A stretch of DNA of 64,000 nt from the NCBI RefSeq assembly GCF_000519325.1, contig NZ_KI912613.1:3570918-3634917 (forward strand), in the 5' to 3' direction. Made by a program: the position numbers and the translations under genes. The notes under the pieces are model-generated. The model was given only the letters and a program-made list of their open reading frames with translations. It was not told the origin of the DNA and did not search any database. Shown piece after piece: positions 3,662 to 61,041 of this stretch; positions within the stretch are counted from its first letter, which is position 1, and each line of letters opens with the position of its first letter. This stretch comes from Patulibacter minatonensis DSM 18081. Its GTDB lineage: Bacteria; Actinomycetota; Thermoleophilia; Solirubrobacterales; Solirubrobacteraceae.

Positions 3662-3782
3662 GACGTGGTCGCAGTCTGGTCGCTGGGGGCGCGCGAAGCA
3701 CGACCACGTGGCGCCGACCCCTGACGTGGTCGCAGTTCGGCCGTCGGGGGCGTTCGAACCACGACCACGTCCCACCGACCGC
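3662..3782. repeat. Locus A: two dyad repeats, 61-bp period, upstream of flagellin
   Basis: Two units begin at 3662 and 3723, exactly 61 bp apart. Each has the arms ACGTGGTCG and CGACCACGT: 3663-3671 with 3701-3709, and 3724-3732 with 3762-3770. The dyad spans 47 bp both times, while the 29-nt loops differ at many positions. The repeats fill the middle of the 327-nt gap between the propeller gene and flagellin; nothing coding is visible there. One of six loci with the same period. Confidence 0.85.
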
Positions 3783-18994: not shown

Positions 18995-19066
18995 GCGCCG
19001 GTCCCGACGCGACGGCAGGCGCGGGCAACGAGTCCGCCCCGCGGCGGCACGCGGGGGGCCGGCCGG

Positions 19067-19240
19067 GGTCACGGACGGTCGGAAACCGGCCACGAACGAC
19101 CCCCGACCCGGCCGTCCCGTCACGCCGAGGTCACGGACGGTCGGGTACCGACCACGAACGACCCCCGACCCGGCCGTCCCGTCACGCCGAGGTCACGGAC
19201 GGTCGGGTACCGACCACGAACGACCCCCGACCCGGCCCTC
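19067..19240. repeat. Locus B: about 2.8 tandem copies of a 62-bp dyad repeat
   Basis: Units begin at 19067, 19129 and 19191. Each starts GGTCACGGACGGTCGG and contains the dyad GGTCGGGTACCGACC (the first copy reads GGTCGGAAACCGGCC) and a CCGACCCGGC tail. Copies two and three are identical over almost their whole length. The locus sits in a 310-nt gap between convergent genes; nothing coding is visible. The unit shares its start, centre and tail with locus C, but the segment between centre and tail differs. Confidence 0.9.
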
Positions 19241-19304
19241 CAGCACGACGGGCGCGGCGGACGTGTCGGGGACCACGCGTGGCCGATCGACGGCCGGGTC
19301 GCCG

Positions 19305-22088: not shown

Positions 22089-22130
22089 CCGGCGGCTCGC
22101 CGGGCGATCGACCGACCGGATCACCGCGCC

Positions 22131-22480
22131 GCGGTCACGGATGCCCGGATACCGACCGGAAGTGACCTCCGACCCGGGTCGCCGTTGTGTTGCGGTCACG
22201 GATGGTCGGATACCGACCGGAGGTGACCTCCGACCCGGCTCGTCGTCGCGCCGCGGTCACGGATGGTCGGATACCGACCGGAGGTGACCTCCGACCCGGC
22301 TCGTCGTCGCGCCGCGGTCACGGATGGTCGGATACCGACCAGCGGTGACCTCCGACCCGACCCGACCCGATCCGATCCGATCCGACCCGATCCGATCCGA
22401 CCCGACCCGACCCGATCCGATCCGACCCGACGCGCGCCGCGGTCACCGATGGCCGGAGACCGACCGGGAACGGACCCGGC
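22131..22480. repeat. Locus C: four 61-bp dyad repeats, a CCGAY microsatellite and a fifth, decayed copy
   Basis: Units begin at 22131, 22192, 22253 and 22314, each exactly 61 bp apart. Within each unit GGTCAC pairs with GTGACC around the inner dyad GGTCGG-TA-CCGACC (with one extra A). After the fourth unit comes a run of about 16 CCGAC/CCGAT pentamers (22352-22432), then a divergent copy starting at 22439. The 419-nt gap between the DsbA-like and OsmC genes contains nothing else I can identify. Confidence 0.92.
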
Positions 22481-55060: not shown

Positions 55061-55465
55061 TCAGAACGCGACGCCGCGCGCGTCGGCGTACGACCCGACC
55101 GGGACGACCCGCTGCCCGAGCGGGAGGAGGCTGATCGGGATCAGCTTGAAGTTCGCGATGCCGAACGGGATCCCGATGATCGTCACGCAGAGCAGGACGC
55201 CGGTGACCAGGTGCCCCAGGGCCAGCCACCAGCCGGCGAGGAGGAGCCAGATGACGTTCCCGATCCCGGACATCACCCCGGCGTCGGCGGCCGGCACGAC
55301 CGTCCGGCCGAAGGGCCACAGGCAGAACCCGGCGATCCGGAGCGCGGCGATGGAGAACGGGATCGTGACGATCGGGATCACCATCAGGATCGCCGCGAAC
55401 GTGTAGGCGAGCGCCATCCAGAACCCGGCCAGGACGAGCCACAGGACGTTGAGGATCAGGCGCAT
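55061..55465 (-). CDS. yccF: YccF-family membrane protein
   Basis: The protein has 134 residues. Two copies of a YccF/DUF307 unit: LNVLWLVLAGFWMALAYTFA, IPIVTIPFSIAALRIAGFCLWPFGRTVV, then GNVIWLLLAGWWLALGHLVT, IIGIPFGIANFKLIPISLLP and LGQRVV. The family consists of small inner-membrane proteins with no known activity. TAGGCT lies 6 nt before the ATG. Confidence 0.93.
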   Translation of the reverse strand: MRLILNVLWLVLAGFWMALAYTFAAILMVIPIVTIPFSIAALRIAGFCLWPFGRTVVPAADAGVMSGIGNVIWLLLAGWWLALGHLVTGVLLCVTIIGIPFGIANFKLIPISLLPLGQRVVPVGSYADARGVAF

Positions 55466-55471
55466 GGGGCG

Positions 55472-55477
55472 AGCCTA
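55472..55477 (-). promoter_or_regulatory. -10 element, leaderless start of yccF
   Basis: TAGGCT on the minus strand, 6 nt before the ATG at 55465. Confidence 0.6.
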
Positions 55478-55610
55478 CGGCGGGCGGGTGAGGCCGCGAT
55501 CAACGGGCGGGGCGGTGGGTGCCGGGTGGGGCAGCGGCGCGGGGGACGGAGGCGGGGCGCTGCGGGCACCCGATCGCCGGATACGTGGGACGGACGCGCG
55601 GAACGAGTGC

Positions 55611-55712
55611 GACGTGACAACCCCCACCCGTCCCGGAGGGCCTTGTCACGTGTCCGGGTGCTGGGGAGGACGACGTGACGAGGGGCGCCGACACCGGGGG
55701 GTTCGTCACGTC
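55611..55712. repeat. Locus E: two dyads, 61-bp period, with a compensating change
   Basis: Units begin at 55611 and 55672 (61 bp). Unit 1 pairs ACGTGACAA (55612-55620) with TTGTCACGT (55643-55651); unit 2 pairs ACGTGACGA (55673-55681) with TCGTCACGT (55703-55711). The A-to-G change in one arm is matched by T-to-C in the other, so pairing is kept while sequence changes. Loops differ. Lies in the 838-nt gene-free stretch 55466-56303. Confidence 0.88.
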
Positions 55713-55797
55713 CTTCTGATTGGAACCGAGACGCCGGGGTCGCTACGGCCGCGGTCGGCTCGACCCAGCCCCGGCGGGTGCGAGAGACGGCAGCGGT

Positions 55798-55975
55798 GCG
55801 GCCGAGGCGGACGGGACGGCCGAAGGCGGCGGGGCGCCCGAGGCGGACGGGAGGGCAGCGGAGGGCGGCGGGGCGGACGGGACGGCTGCGGAGGGCGGCG
55901 GGGCGGACGGGGCGGACGGGACGGCTGCGGTGGGCGGCGGGGCGGCCGAGGCGGACGGGACGGCCGACCGGGGTG
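55798..55975. repeat. Degenerate GGCGGACGGGACGG low-complexity tract
   Basis: About 180 nt made of irregular repeats of GGACGGGACGGC and GGGCGGCGGGGCGGAC. It gives open frames on several strands, but none with protein-like composition, so I treat it as non-coding between loci E and F. Confidence 0.7.
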
Positions 55976-56010
55976 GGGGAAGACCCGCCGGCGGTGACGG
56001 GTCGACCGCG

Positions 56011-56119
56011 AGGTGCCAAGCCCCCGCCTCGGACCGAGCCCTTGGCACTTCGTGGTCGTTGAGCGACCCCGATGTGCCACGGTCCCACGCCGGCAAGGGC
56101 CCTTGGCACCTCGTGGTCG
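56011..56119. repeat. Locus F: two dyads, 61-bp period
   Basis: Left arms start at 56013 and 56074, right arms TTGGCAC at 56042 and 56103, all offset by 61 bp. Unit 1 pairs GTGCCAAG with CTTGGCAC; unit 2 keeps GTGCCA with TGGCAC. Both units are followed by CGTGGTCGT, which recalls the arm ACGTGGTCG of locus A. Confidence 0.85.
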
Positions 56120-56176
56120 TCGTCTCCGTGACCCTGCGAACCGTGCCGTCCCGGCGTCAGCGCGGACTGCGCCGTT

Positions 56177-56308
56177 TCGCCGTCCCGCCGTCCCGCCGTC
56201 CCGCCGTCCCGCCGTCCCGCCGTCCCGCCGGACACGCCGCCCCGCCGACCTACTCCACCCCGCCGAACTACTCCACCCCGCCGGACTACGCCGCCCCGCC
56301 GGACTACC
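56177..56308. repeat. CCGTCCCG octamer run and 18-bp tandem repeat
   Basis: About seven copies of the octamer CGTCCCGC are followed by about four copies of an 18-bp unit of the type CCCCGCCGGACTACTCC, ending inside the stop codon of the VOC gene (56304-56306). On the plus strand the 18-mers would read PPxYxxPPxY, but no gene with a start site supports that. Confidence 0.65.
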
Positions 56309-57041
56309 CCGTCCCGACGTACACCGACTCGACGTTGTTCCCGTCGGGGTCGACGACGAAGCCGCCGTAGTAGTGCGGGCCGTACTCGGGGCGCGGGCCC
56401 GGTGCACCGTTGTCGGCGTACCCGGCGGCCAGGGCGGCGGCGTGGAACGCGTCGACCGTCGCGCGGTCCGGTGCGAGGAAGCCCAGGTGGACGTGCTCGG
56501 TGCGGGCGCCGCCGGCGACCAGCGAGAAGGTGCCGCCGCCCGGGCCCTCGCGGACGTACGAGACCCGCTCGCCCGTGTCGGTCAGCCGCCGGATCGGGGC
56601 GTGGGGCGCGATCGCCTCGAAGAACGTCCGCGACGCGGCGAGGTTGCCGACGCGGATCCAGAGGTGGTCGACGTTGCCGTCGGTCCGCCGGCCGTCGCGA
56701 TGGACGGCCTCGACGCTGTTGCCGTCGGGATCGCGGAGGAACGCCCCGTAGTAGGTCGGGGTGAAGTCGCGGACCCCGGGCCGCCCGTCGTCGGGCGCCC
56801 CGACCTCGACGCCGGCGCGCCAGAAGGCGTCGACCAGGTCCCGCGACGCCACCGAGAACGCCAGGTGGAGGTTCCTCGTGACCGGATGCCCCGGACCCGC
56901 CTCGGCGAACGAGAAGTCGCGCCACTGCAGGTAGACCGGCCCGCCGGTCGGTCGCTCGAGCCGGGCGGCCTCGAGCACGGGCCGGTAGAAGCGCTCGGCT
57001 GCCCGGCGGTCGGAGACGCGGATGGTGACGTGGTCGAACAT
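56304..57041 (-). CDS. Tandem VOC-domain protein
   Basis: The protein has 245 residues and two glyoxalase-fold modules. Module 1: MFDHVTIRVSDRRAAERFY to YYGAFLRDPDGNSVEAVHRD; module 2: VDHLWIRVGNLAASRTFFEA to YYGGFVVDPDGNNVESVYVG. Each ends with the D-P-D-G-N-x-V-E motif containing the metal-ligand Glu. Fused VOC modules occur in extradiol dioxygenases, and in simple lyases and resistance proteins; I cannot choose. A TACGGT hexamer lies 13 nt upstream of the ATG. Confidence 0.88.
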   Translation of the reverse strand: MFDHVTIRVSDRRAAERFYRPVLEAARLERPTGGPVYLQWRDFSFAEAGPGHPVTRNLHLAFSVASRDLVDAFWRAGVEVGAPDDGRPGVRDFTPTYYGAFLRDPDGNSVEAVHRDGRRTDGNVDHLWIRVGNLAASRTFFEAIAPHAPIRRLTDTGERVSYVREGPGGGTFSLVAGGARTEHVHLGFLAPDRATVDAFHAAALAAGYADNGAPGPRPEYGPHYYGGFVVDPDGNNVESVYVGTG

Positions 57042-57118: not shown

Positions 57119-57985
57119 TCAGCCGGCCTTCGCCCGTCGCTTCGAACCGCCTCGGGACGTCGCCGTCCCGCCGCCCTTCTTCGACCGGGCCCTCGCCGTC
57201 GCCAGGCTCTCCTCGAGCGCCGCCATCAGGTCCTTCGGGGCCTTCTGCGGGGCCGGCTCGGGGTCGTGCTCCGGGATCTCGACCTCGCCGTTCTTCCGCT
57301 TCTCGTCGATCAGGCGCAGCAGGCGGACGCGGTGGCAGTCGTCGTAGCGGGAGGGCTTGAAGTCGTCGGTGAGCTCGCCGATCAGGGCGACGGCGTCGTC
57401 GATCTCGCGCTTCGTCGGCTTCCCCTTCTTCCCCGTCGGGATCGCCCCGATGTCGTCGGGGGTGCGGAGCTCGTCGGCGAAGTGCATCGTCGTCAGGGAC
57501 AGCAGGCCGTCCTGCTCGCGGAGGGCGACGAGGTACTCCTTGGCGCGCAGGACGATGCGCCCGATCGCGACCTGGCCCGCCTTCGCCATCACGTCGACGA
57601 GCAGGCGGTACGCGCGGATCGGTCCGTCGCCGTCGCCGGCGGGGAGCAGCCAGTAGGGGTGGTCGAAGTAGACCGGGTCGATGTCCGTGAGCGCGACGAA
57701 GAGGTCGATGTCCACGGTGCGCGTCTTGTCGGGCTGCGCGGCCTCGAAGTCCTCGTCGGTGAGGACGATCATCCGGTCGTCGTCGGTCTCCCAGCCCTTG
57801 GCGACGTCCTCCCAGTCGACCTCCTTCCCGTCGGTCGATGCGACGCGCTGCATCTGCACCCGCTCGCCGGTCTCCTTGTGCACCTGGTGGAAGTGCACGT
57901 CGCGGTCGCGCACCGCCGAGACGAGCTGCACCGGCACGTTGACCAGGCCGAAGCTCAGCGAGCCGGTCCAGAGGGAGCGCGCCAT
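57119..57985 (-). CDS. ku: Ku protein (copy 1), non-homologous end joining
   Basis: The protein has 288 residues. MARSLWTGSLSFGLVNVPVQ is the Ku-core start, then HKETGERVQMQRVASTDGKEVDW, IDLFVALTDIDPVYFDHPYW, RLLVDVMAKAGQVAIGRIVL and a C-terminal tail with SKKGGGTATSRGGSKRRAK. Bacterial Ku forms ring-shaped dimers that load on double-strand DNA ends and recruit LigD. It begins within the stop of the second ku gene (TGATG), so the two are co-translated and may form a heterodimer. LigD is 3 kb away. Confidence 0.95.
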   Translation of the reverse strand: MARSLWTGSLSFGLVNVPVQLVSAVRDRDVHFHQVHKETGERVQMQRVASTDGKEVDWEDVAKGWETDDDRMIVLTDEDFEAAQPDKTRTVDIDLFVALTDIDPVYFDHPYWLLPAGDGDGPIRAYRLLVDVMAKAGQVAIGRIVLRAKEYLVALREQDGLLSLTTMHFADELRTPDDIGAIPTGKKGKPTKREIDDAVALIGELTDDFKPSRYDDCHRVRLLRLIDEKRKNGEVEIPEHDPEPAPQKAPKDLMAALEESLATARARSKKGGGTATSRGGSKRRAKAG

Positions 57986-58968
57986 CAGGACGCCGCCTTC
58001 TTCTTCGTGGTCGACGGCTTCTTCTTCGTCGTCGACGCCTTCTTCTTGGCGGACGCCCTCTTGGTGGCGGTCGACGTCGACCCACCGGACGACGGCTTCC
58101 CGCTCGAGGACTTCGACCCGCCGGACGACGCCTTCGCCTTCGCCGAGCTCGCCCCCGCCGTCGCCTTCTTCCGCTCCGCGGCGGTCTTCCGCTTCGGCTT
58201 CCCGCCCTTCAGGCTCGCCTCCAGCGCGTCGGCGAGATCCCCTCCGTCCTCGGGCTTGCGCTTCGCCTTCTTCGGCTCCTTGCCGTGGCGCTTGCGCTCG
58301 ATGAGGTCCATCACGGCGTCGCGGTAGGTGTCGTGCTGCTCCTCGGGCTCCCAGTCGCCCTGGAGCATCTCGACGAGCGCGCCGGCCATCTTGACCTCGC
58401 GGGCGCCCGGCTTCTTCCGCAGCGACGGGAGCTCGAGGTCGGACTTGTCGACGAGCTCGTCGTCGAAGCGCATGGTCTGGATCCCGAGGGCGCCGCCGAG
58501 CGGGCGGACGGCGACGAGGTTCTCGCGGGAGCGCAGGACGAAGCGCCCGATGCCGACCTTGTCGCTCTTCTCCAGCGCCGCGAGGAGGACGCGGTAGCCG
58601 TGGACGCCGTCGTCCTGGGCGCCGACGAGGTAAGGCTTGTCGTAGAAGACGGGGTCGATCTCCTCGGCGCGGACGAAGTGCTCGATCGCGATGACCTTCG
58701 GGTGCGTGCCCTCGGCCGCGGCGATCTCCTCCTTCGTCAGGACGATCTGGCCGTCGTCGCCCTCGTCGTAGGCCTTCTCGATGTCGGCGTACTCGATCTC
58801 GTCGCCGGACTCGGCGCCGATCCGCCGGTGCTCGATCGTCGCGCCGTCGCTCGCGCGGACCTCCCGGAACCGGAGGGTGTGCGGGCTGGTGGCCGAGAAC
58901 AGCTTCACCGGGATCGCGACGGACCCGAACGTGATCGTCCCGTTCCAGATGGAGCGCGCAGCGGGCAT
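57985..58968 (-). CDS. ku: Ku protein (copy 2) with Lys-rich tail
   Basis: The protein has 327 residues. MPAARSIWNGTITFGSVAIP starts the core, then GAESGDEIEYADIEKAYDEG, IEHFVRAEEIDPVFYDKPYL and RFVLRSRENLVAVRPL. The core ends near residue 255 and is followed by about 70 residues of Lys/Ser/Ala repeats (KRASAKKKASTTKKKPSTTK), typical of the DNA-binding extensions on some actinobacterial Ku proteins. Copy 1 has a shorter tail, so the two may differ in DNA grip. First gene of the pair. Confidence 0.95.
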   Translation of the reverse strand: MPAARSIWNGTITFGSVAIPVKLFSATSPHTLRFREVRASDGATIEHRRIGAESGDEIEYADIEKAYDEGDDGQIVLTKEEIAAAEGTHPKVIAIEHFVRAEEIDPVFYDKPYLVGAQDDGVHGYRVLLAALEKSDKVGIGRFVLRSRENLVAVRPLGGALGIQTMRFDDELVDKSDLELPSLRKKPGAREVKMAGALVEMLQGDWEPEEQHDTYRDAVMDLIERKRHGKEPKKAKRKPEDGGDLADALEASLKGGKPKRKTAAERKKATAGASSAKAKASSGGSKSSSGKPSSGGSTSTATKRASAKKKASTTKKKPSTTKKKAAS

Positions 58969-59046
58969 GGGGACGACGGGTACCCCGTGGGAGCCGGGCG
59001 ACGCACCGACCGCTGGCGGTCGGGCGTACGGGGTAGGGGCCGGGCG

Positions 59047-59958
59047 ATGGCCGCCCCCGACGCATCCGGATCCCCCGACCCCGAGGATCCCGCGCCGCCC
59101 GACGACCGGTCGGCGGACCGGCCGCGGGTCGAGGTCACGCTCTTCACGGACCCGGCGTGCCCGTTCGCGTTCTCGTGGGAACCCGTCCGCTGGGCGCTGC
59201 GGTGGCAGTACGGCCGGCAGCTGCGCTGGCGGACGACGATGATCGTCCTGACCCGCGAGGAGGGGGAGGCCGAGAAGCTCGCCGGGGGCGCCGACGGCCT
59301 GCAGGAGGCGTACGGGATGCCGATCGCGCGCGGCCCGCACGCCCGTCCCGCGTCGAGCGAGCCCGCGTGCCGCGCGGTCGTCGCGGTACGCCTGAACGCC
59401 CCGGAGCACGAGGAGGCGCTGCTCCGTCGCATCCGTGTCCGGACCATGGCGGGCGGGCTGCTCGACGATCCGACCCTGCTCGCCGCGGCGGCGGTCGACG
59501 TCGGCCTGGACCCCGTCCGCGTCCAGACGTGGGCGGCGACCGCGCCGGTCGCGATCGCGCTCGACGAGGACGCCACGGCCGCGCGGACCCCGTCCCCGAG
59601 GGCACGGGCGCTCGACCACCGCCTCGGCGGTCCCGCCGGCGAGCGGCGCTACAGCGCCCCGAGCCTCGAGCTGCGGCTCCCGTCCGGCCCCGGCGTCGCG
59701 AGCGTCCCGGGCTTCAACTCGCACCCGACGTACGAGATCGCGCTGGCGAACCTCGACCCCGCGCTCCGGCGCCGCGACGCCCCCGACGACGTCCCGACGC
59801 TCCTGGACTGGGCCGGCGTGCCGCTCGCGACGGCCGAGGTCGCCGCCATGATGCGGATCGACCGGGACGACGCCCGCGAGCGGCTCGAACGCGTCGCGAC
59901 CCGCATCGATTCCGGCGCCGACGCGTACTGGGCCCTGCCGGACCGCGCGAGAACCTGA
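59047..59958 (+). CDS. DsbA/FrnE-type thioredoxin-fold protein
   Basis: The protein has 303 residues, soluble, with no signal peptide. VEVTLFTDPACPFAFSWEPV carries a CPF motif at the usual redox site: one Cys is present but the second is missing, as in HCCA isomerase/GST-kappa and FrnE-like cytoplasmic members. SVPGFNSHPTYEIALANLDP is a conserved late block. It may bind glutathione-like or mycothiol-like thiols or act as an isomerase; activity unassigned. It diverges from the ku pair, 78 nt apart. Confidence 0.8.
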   Translation: MAAPDASGSPDPEDPAPPDDRSADRPRVEVTLFTDPACPFAFSWEPVRWALRWQYGRQLRWRTTMIVLTREEGEAEKLAGGADGLQEAYGMPIARGPHARPASSEPACRAVVAVRLNAPEHEEALLRRIRVRTMAGGLLDDPTLLAAAAVDVGLDPVRVQTWAATAPVAIALDEDATAARTPSPRARALDHRLGGPAGERRYSAPSLELRLPSGPGVASVPGFNSHPTYEIALANLDPALRRRDAPDDVPTLLDWAGVPLATAEVAAMMRIDRDDARERLERVATRIDSGADAYWALPDRART

Positions 59959-60081
59959 GCAGCCCTCCCGGCGCAGCGGTCCACGGCCGCGCATCGCCGG
60001 TCCCCCACGGCGGTTCCACGGCCCCTCGCGGACGCCCGAACGCGAGTGGTGGACGCCCTCCCGACGGCCCATGCTTCGCGC

Positions 60082-61041
60082 ATGAGCTACGGCCCCGCCC
60101 ACCGCACCTACGCCCGCGACCACGACGCCTGGCGGACGGTCCAGCCGCTGCTGCCCGCCGCCATGCGGACCCTCGGCGACGAGCCGGAGGAGGAGGCGTG
60201 GACGAGCGGGGCCGCGACGCTGCACCTCGACCGCTACCGGGTGGAGGACGCCCCGGCGACCGTCGTCGTGCTCCACGGCGGCGGCGGGCACGGGCGGCTC
60301 CTGTCGAGTGCCGGGCGACTCGCGCGGGACGCCGGCATCGAGGCCGTGATGCCCGACCTGCCCGGGTACGGCCTCACCGACGCGCCGCCGTCGGACCGCC
60401 GCTACGAGGCCTGGGTGCGGCTCGCGGCGGGACTGGTCGTGGCCGAGCGGGAGCGCAGCGGTCGCCCGCTGGTGGTCGCCGGGATGAGCCTCGGCGGGAT
60501 GCTCGCGTGGCACGTCGCGGCGTCGCTGCCGGTCGGCACGGTCGCGGGCGTCGTGGCGACGAACCTGCTCGACACCGCGGACCCGGCGGTCCGGGCGGCG
60601 GTCGTCCGGCACCCGGCGCTCGCGCGCGTCGCGCCGGCCGCGCTCCGGGCGCTGCCGCGACGGCTCGACGACCTCCGCGTGCCGCTCTCGCTGGTCGGGA
60701 ACGTCGGCGGGATCAGCAACGACCCGGCGGTCACCCGGGCGCTCGTCGCCGACCGTCGCGGGACGGGCTCGCGGGTCGCCCTCGGCTTCCTGCGCACGTG
60801 GCTGGCGTACGAGCCGCCGGTCGCCCCGGAGGACTGGGAGCACGGCCCGGTCCTCCTGGCCCACCCGGGAGCGGACGCCTGGACGCCGACGGCGCTCAGC
60901 CTGCGGTTCTTCGACCGGATCGCCGGCCCGAAGCGGTTCCTCGAGCTCGAGGACGGCGGCCACCTGCCGATGGAGGAGCCCGGCCTCACGACGATGCGGG
61001 ACGCGATCGCGGGGCTCGTGGCGACGCCCGCCGGCGGGTGA
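60082..61041 (+). CDS. Alpha/beta hydrolase (esterase-like)
   Basis: The protein has 319 residues. TVVVLHGGGGHGRLLSSAGR gives the oxyanion HGGG, VVAGMSLGGMLAWHVAASL the nucleophile elbow G-M-S-L-G with Ser, LLAHPGADAWTPTALSLRF the acid region, and ELEDGGHLPMEEPGL the catalytic His. It is a monoglyceride-lipase-like or carboxylesterase-like enzyme with no signal peptide. Its stop (61041) is 3 nt from the ligD stop on the other strand (61045), with no room for a terminator. Confidence 0.9.
   Translation: MSYGPAHRTYARDHDAWRTVQPLLPAAMRTLGDEPEEEAWTSGAATLHLDRYRVEDAPATVVVLHGGGGHGRLLSSAGRLARDAGIEAVMPDLPGYGLTDAPPSDRRYEAWVRLAAGLVVAERERSGRPLVVAGMSLGGMLAWHVAASLPVGTVAGVVATNLLDTADPAVRAAVVRHPALARVAPAALRALPRRLDDLRVPLSLVGNVGGISNDPAVTRALVADRRGTGSRVALGFLRTWLAYEPPVAPEDWEHGPVLLAHPGADAWTPTALSLRFFDRIAGPKRFLELEDGGHLPMEEPGLTTMRDAIAGLVATPAGG

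What the first reader, a model, noticed from the sequence alone, without database searches (positions are those of the whole stretch)
55611..55712. Compensating base change in locus E dyads
Arms ACGTGACAA/TTGTCACGT in unit 1 become ACGTGACGA/TCGTCACGT in unit 2. Both arms changed so that pairing is kept, the usual mark of selection on a hairpin or a dyad binding site rather than simple duplication.
Basis: seen in the sequence. Interest (0 to 1): 0.65.

Follow-up and report, generated by a model that had tools for sequence, protein, structure and literature searches.

The report
Phased palindromic repeat doublet in Patulibacter
The two matching hairpin-like repeats are real and belong to a large set of paired palindromic repeats that has spread between genes in this one Patulibacter genome; the single 'compensating' base change does not by itself prove a selected hairpin, but the repeats are spaced in steps of about one DNA turn, which suggests that a protein binds them.

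Summary
The sequence observation is right: ACGTGACAA/TTGTCACGT at 55612-55651 and ACGTGACGA/TCGTCACGT at 55673-55711, unit period 61. The inference is weak. The whole genome holds this family at three loci, two dyads each. The variable pair reads A-T 3, G-C 2, A.C 1, no better than independent arms (exact p 0.20, my arithmetic). In the largest related family (105 distinct copies, 40 arrays) arms vary independently and two internal column pairs avoid pairing. Over five families, stem changes between neighbouring units are one-sided 168 times and both-sided-and-kept 8 times. One other family (core GGTACC) does show stem covariation, so a folded form is not excluded. The doublet belongs to a REP/REPIN-like superfamily of imperfect-palindrome doublets and arrays, not found in congeners where I looked, concentrated at gene 3' ends and between convergent genes. 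No RAYT-type (Y1) transposase was found. Unit spacing is quantised at 60-62, 70-73 and 80-82 bp with almost nothing between, although linkers of different arrays are nearly unrelated. I read this as dyads bound as double-stranded (or cruciform) DNA by a protein on one face of the helix. New variant of a known kind; moderate interest.

The parts
55612..55651 (.). Dyad unit 1 of the B doublet: ACGTGACAA N22 TTGTCACGT
55673..55711 (.). Dyad unit 2 of the B doublet: ACGTGACGA N21 TCGTCACGT; unit start-to-start 61 bp
55652..55672 (.). 21-bp linker between the two dyads; on either strand the whole 106-nt doublet can fold into one long hairpin (- strand -60.8 kcal/mol, z -4.1)
56011..56048 (.). C family dyad 1: GGTGCCAAG ... 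CTTGGCAC, in the same intergenic region
56073..56108 (.). C family dyad 2: GTGCCAcgg ... cTTGGCAC, 61 bp from dyad 1, carries an unpaired arm position that recurs in the second C locus (5105844)
55466..56303 (.). Expanded intergenic region (about 850 bp) between yccF (55061-55465, -) and a glyoxalase gene (56304-57041, -); about 108 bp (G007) and about 45 bp (G001) at the same place in congeners, without dyads
3662..3780 (.). A family doublet (ACGTGGTCG N29 CGACCACGT, period 61)
19062..19241 (.). E family array, period 62
22125..22359 (.). E family array, period 61 (GGTCAC-GGA-TGGTCGG-ATA-CCGACC...GTGACC)

Best explanation
The feature is a REP/REPIN-like doublet: two imperfect palindromes held 61 bp apart, one of at least six sequence families of such doublets and tandem arrays that have multiplied between genes in this Patulibacter genome. 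Shown: dyad architecture, doublet and array organisation, absence from orthologous spacers of congeners, bias to convergent gene ends and 3' ends, and unit spacing quantised in steps of about 10 bp while linkers differ. Inferred: the dyads work as double-stranded DNA (or extruded cruciforms) bound cooperatively by a host or element protein sitting on one face of the helix, possibly with a topological or boundary role between convergent genes; the doublet is the copied unit and arrays grow by unequal recombination of units and doublets. The A-T to G-C difference is best read as variation at a purine-tolerant arm position, not as a demonstrated compensatory substitution.
For: Period spectrum of same-arm dyad pairs in 2.44 Mb: 34 at 61, 14 at 72, 7 at 80-81, none at 64-68 and few at 75-79. 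In E the successive spacings are 61-62 (32), 70-73 (40), 80-82 (5), one at 75, though linkers of different arrays are only 37-39% identical against 33-36% for shuffled ones and 87-97% within arrays. Rayleigh R 0.70 at 10.3 bp for 68 intergenic arrays. In E the GGTC half-site repeats 10 bp apart within each arm. Convergent gene pairs hold 28 of 71 arrays against 391 of 2044 gene pairs, p 5e-5; same-strand arrays lie nearer the upstream 3' end in 26 of 36. The B family is three loci of exactly two dyads; C is two loci of two dyads with the same asymmetry in unit 2. E: 107/112 hits (+/-) in this genome, 0 in 40 relatives. The yccF spacer lacks dyads in congeners. B loci flank unrelated genes.
Against: No binding protein is identified. 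Discrete spacings could partly reflect a few founder doublets whose linkers have since diverged. The best-fit step is 9.3-10.0 bp when scanned freely, with only three classes to fit. Internal column pairs 8-9 of E avoid complementarity (p about 0.005) and J outer stems covary, which point to a folded single strand or cruciform. The window doublet lies closer to the start of yccF than to the glyoxalase 3' end. Only 2.44 of 5.52 Mb was read in full.
Confidence: 0.52

Rival explanations
1. Selected hairpin: the repeats act as single strands (RNA 3' structures, or ssDNA hairpins processed by an unknown nuclease as in REPINs), and the paired change is true compensation.
For: J family outer stem covaries across arrays (columns 4, 5, 7 p 0.0005-0.001; columns 1, 3, 5 p 0.0008-0.003 in a set not chosen for pairing). 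Each B unit folds better than shuffles (z -1.9 to -2.8) and the doublet strongly on the - strand (z -4.1). E keeps an internal mismatch, as E. coli REP needs a bulge (PMC8266576). Compensatory changes are common in REPIN hairpins (PMC3116915). The A.C mismatch at 4289258 is a G.U on the other strand.
Against: No covariation in E; one-sided changes far outnumber kept double changes. Steps of about 10 bp in spacing are not expected for RNA or ssDNA hairpins. No PF01797 transposase in the genome, while the same search found it in E. coli.
Confidence: 0.25
2. Neutral mutation: arms are kept alike by template switching at quasi-palindromes or gene conversion, so a paired change arises in one step without selection.
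For: The mechanism is documented to create and maintain stems (PMC8794818). Arms within an array resemble each other more than loops do.
Against: It would also homogenise the internal positions of E, which instead avoid complementarity, and it does not explain fixed spacing or recurrence of the same arms at distant loci.
Confidence: 0.1
3. Conserved operator or terminator of the neighbouring genes (yccF, glyoxalase).
For: Lies 146 bp upstream of yccF; dyads at about three-turn spacing look like operators.
Against: Absent from the yccF upstream region of four congeners; other B loci flank an ECF sigma/alcohol dehydrogenase pair and an IS256-type transposase/CobW pair; no T tract after the dyads.
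Confidence: 0.05

Closest known systems
REPINs / REP doublets of Pseudomonas (PMC3116915)
   Same: Short palindromes in doublets at fixed distance (71 and 110 bp peaks in SBW25), able to form one long hairpin, extragenic, singletons under-represented, tandem arrays
   Different: No RAYT (PF01797) found in this genome; several spacing classes in about 10-bp steps; several unrelated families with few copies each; arms vary independently in the main family
BIME / REP of Enterobacteria (PMC2817692)
   Same: Imperfect palindromes with an internal mismatch, tandem groups; BIMEs bind IHF, gyrase and Pol I
   Different: Different sequence; tandem of near-symmetric dyads; binding proteins unknown
GTAG- and CGTC-tagged REPs (PMC3733652)
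   Same: Located between convergent genes and close to 3' ends; the CGTC class also lacks a dedicated transposase
   Different: No shared foot tetranucleotide noticed by eye; arms separated by long loops (20-29) in A, B and C
Bacterial satellites / VNTR-type tandem repeats (PMC6749651)
   Same: Tandem intergenic units of fixed length, species-specific
   Different: Dyad in the unit and quantised periods shared by unrelated families

Membership tests
REP / REPIN | Short imperfect palindrome, many extragenic copies | tested here: met
   121 E copies in 40 arrays within 2.44 Mb; 107/112 hits genome-wide; arrays intergenic. The B family itself has only six dyads
REP / REPIN | Doublet as the unit | tested here: met
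   B is three loci of two, C two loci of two; E singletons 4 of 40 arrays
REP / REPIN | Cognate RAYT (Y1 / TnpA_REP) gene in the genome | tested here: not met
   PF01797 absent from the genome; E. coli control positive
REP / REPIN | Conserved GTAG-type tetranucleotide at the foot | tested here: inconclusive
   No shared foot motif seen by eye in E, J, A, D, B flanks; no formal motif test
RNA hairpin under selection | Covariation across copies | tested here: inconclusive
   Absent in E, not significant in B and D, present in J
Intrinsic terminator | Hairpin followed by a T run | tested here: not met
   No T run after either dyad on either strand
CRISPR array | Unique spacers between identical repeats | tested here: not met
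   Linkers are 87-97% identical within arrays
Known Rfam RNA | Covariance model match | tested here: not met
   Only two tRNAs in the window
Protein-bound phased DNA array | Binding of a protein | not testable with these tools
   Only spacing and half-site repetition could be tested

The most novel reading that the evidence does not exclude
A lineage-specific chromosome-wide system in which one protein or a protein family recognises several palindrome families, all set out at three, four or five helical turns between dyads, to bridge or wrap DNA at convergent gene ends, spread without a RAYT transposase.
Probability: 0.2. Interest if true: 0.75.

Novelty: new variant of a known kind. Interest (0 to 1): 0.42.

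Why it matters
REP-like repeats are usually explained by single-strand hairpins and a RAYT transposase. Here they abound without that enzyme, and their spacing follows the DNA helix while the sequence between them does not seem to matter. That makes 'folded strand or bound duplex?' directly testable. It is also a caution: a single paired arm change in a dyad is weak evidence, as the family-wide counts show.

Tried and rejected
Operator of yccF: rejected by congener loci. CRISPR: linkers repeat. Rfam RNA: none. RAYT-borne REP: PF01797 absent. A first Markov control was spoiled by runs of N and was replaced. The first J set was partly chosen for pairing, so it was rerun unselected; that set in turn mixes true members and chance hits, which can inflate column association. 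Paper searches for Patulibacter repeats and for helical phasing of REPs gave nothing relevant.

Full report
Observation. One perfect 9-bp dyad is at chance level in this window, but two with the same arms 61 bp apart are not: nine such hits (five arrays) in 1.24 Mb, none in a Markov sequence of the same length.

Place. Relatives of the neighbouring YccF protein point to Patulibacter (Thermoleophilia). The window is part of a 5.52-Mb single-contig assembly. The doublet lies in a region of about 850 bp between yccF and a glyoxalase gene. In G007 the same two genes are about 108 bp apart and in G001 about 45 bp; in G002 and G004 yccF has another upstream neighbour. None has dyads there. The region is thus most likely an addition in this genome, and a second doublet of another sequence (C, GTGCCAAG/CTTGGCAC, also 61 bp apart) lies in it.

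The family. Pattern searches over the whole genome give three B loci, each of exactly two dyads: 1093139/1093200, 3626529/3626590 (the window) and 4289195/4289258, spacing 61, 61 and 63, and none in seven congeners. The three loci have unrelated neighbours: an ECF sigma factor and an alcohol dehydrogenase; YccF and glyoxalase; an IS256-type transposase and a CobW protein.

The superfamily. Reading 2.44 Mb of the genome shows many more dyad arrays with other arms: A (ACGTGGTCG), D (CTGCRG), E (GGTCRYNNN-TGGTCGG-NNN-CCGACCA-NNNYRGACC), J (CGTGTCGG with a GGTACC core) and others. D, E, J and A show an outer stem, an internal loop that is often unpaired, and an inner stem. E has 107/112 hits (+/- strand, up to three mismatches) in this genome and none in 40 relatives. 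Stretches of 200 kb each from two congeners show no such set. Some arrays alternate two unit types (for example 770076 and 2098795), and periods of 122-123 appear, so doublets seem to be amplified as units.

Test of compensation. (a) Own family: the variable pair is A-T in three dyads, G-C in two, A.C in one. With these margins, at least this much agreement has exact probability 4/20 = 0.20 under independent arms (my arithmetic). (b) E, 105 distinct copies in 40 arrays: no stem pair shows a clear excess of Watson-Crick pairs over expectation (the nearest, pair 6/30, has p 0.19 over distinct copies, 0.03 in one draw of one copy per array, and 0.29 averaged over 50 draws); pair 5/31 is AT 46, GT 23, AC 20, GC 8. 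Pairs 8 and 9 are complementary less often than expected, 0.22 against 0.40 and 0.14 against 0.34, p about 0.005 each with one copy per array. (c) Neighbouring units, stem pairs of E, J, A, D and B: 168 one-sided changes, 8 both-sided and kept, 10 both-sided and not kept; double changes expected from independence about 8. (d) J: the outer stem covaries at several columns. So the paired change in B is real but does not show selection on pairing; pairing is conserved through change only in J. A paired change can also come from one template-switch event (PMC8794818).

Spacing. Same-arm dyads lie 61 (34 clusters), 72 (14) or 80-81 (7) bp apart, with none at 64-68 and few at 75-79. In E alone: 61-62 in 32 steps, 70-73 in 40, 80-82 in 5. 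Linkers of different arrays are nearly unrelated (0.37-0.39 against 0.33-0.36 when shuffled), within arrays 0.87-0.97. Half-sites GGTC repeat 10 bp apart inside each E arm. Steps near one helical turn, without sequence conservation between dyads, suggest that the duplex is read by a protein on one face. This is inference: no protein was found, and a few founder doublets could give a similar picture if indels are rare.

Position. Of 71 intergenic arrays with both neighbours called, 28 lie between convergent genes (391 of 2044 gene pairs; odds ratio 2.9, p 5e-5); same-strand arrays lie a median 47 bp from the upstream gene's 3' end and 161 bp from the next start. Genes were called with a simple codon model of my own. 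The same bias is published for REPs (PMC3733652).

Relation to the known. Architecture, doublets, tandem arrays and position are those of REP/REPIN/BIME elements (PMC3116915, PMC2817692, PMC8266576). Membership in the RAYT-linked REP family fails on one tested feature, since no PF01797 gene is present. I therefore call it REP-like, a new variant of a known kind.

Mechanism. Most likely (0.52): REP-like doublets whose dyads are bound as duplex or cruciform DNA in helical phase, copied as doublets by an unidentified route. Next (0.25): folded single strands, supported by J and by the internal mismatch kept in E. The two can hold together if a cruciform is the bound form.

Noticed in passing
window 56003-56119: Second doublet (C family) in the same spacer; a second copy at G000 5105784/5105844 shares the same unpaired arm position in unit 2.
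   Followed up: partly
window 3662-3780: A family doublet about 160 bp upstream of a flagellin-like gene; relatives at G000 770076 (four units), 2031558, 2104154.
   Followed up: partly
window 19062-19241 and 22125-22359: E family arrays, periods 62 and 61.
   Followed up: yes
window 55786-55945 and 56170-56322: Low-complexity GC-rich tandem repeats (units of about 30, 8 and 18 bp) between and beside the two doublets.
   Followed up: no
window 57119-60963, - strand: Two adjacent genes each with a Ku domain (PF02735), i.e. two different Ku proteins side by side.
   Followed up: partly
L189:8191-9027 (G000 4288191-4289027): IS256/Mutator-family transposase directly beside the third B doublet; REP-like repeats as insertion targets are known.
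   Followed up: no
G000 E family, columns 8-9 / 27-28: Internal positions avoid complementarity, so perfect long palindromes are under-represented.
   Followed up: partly
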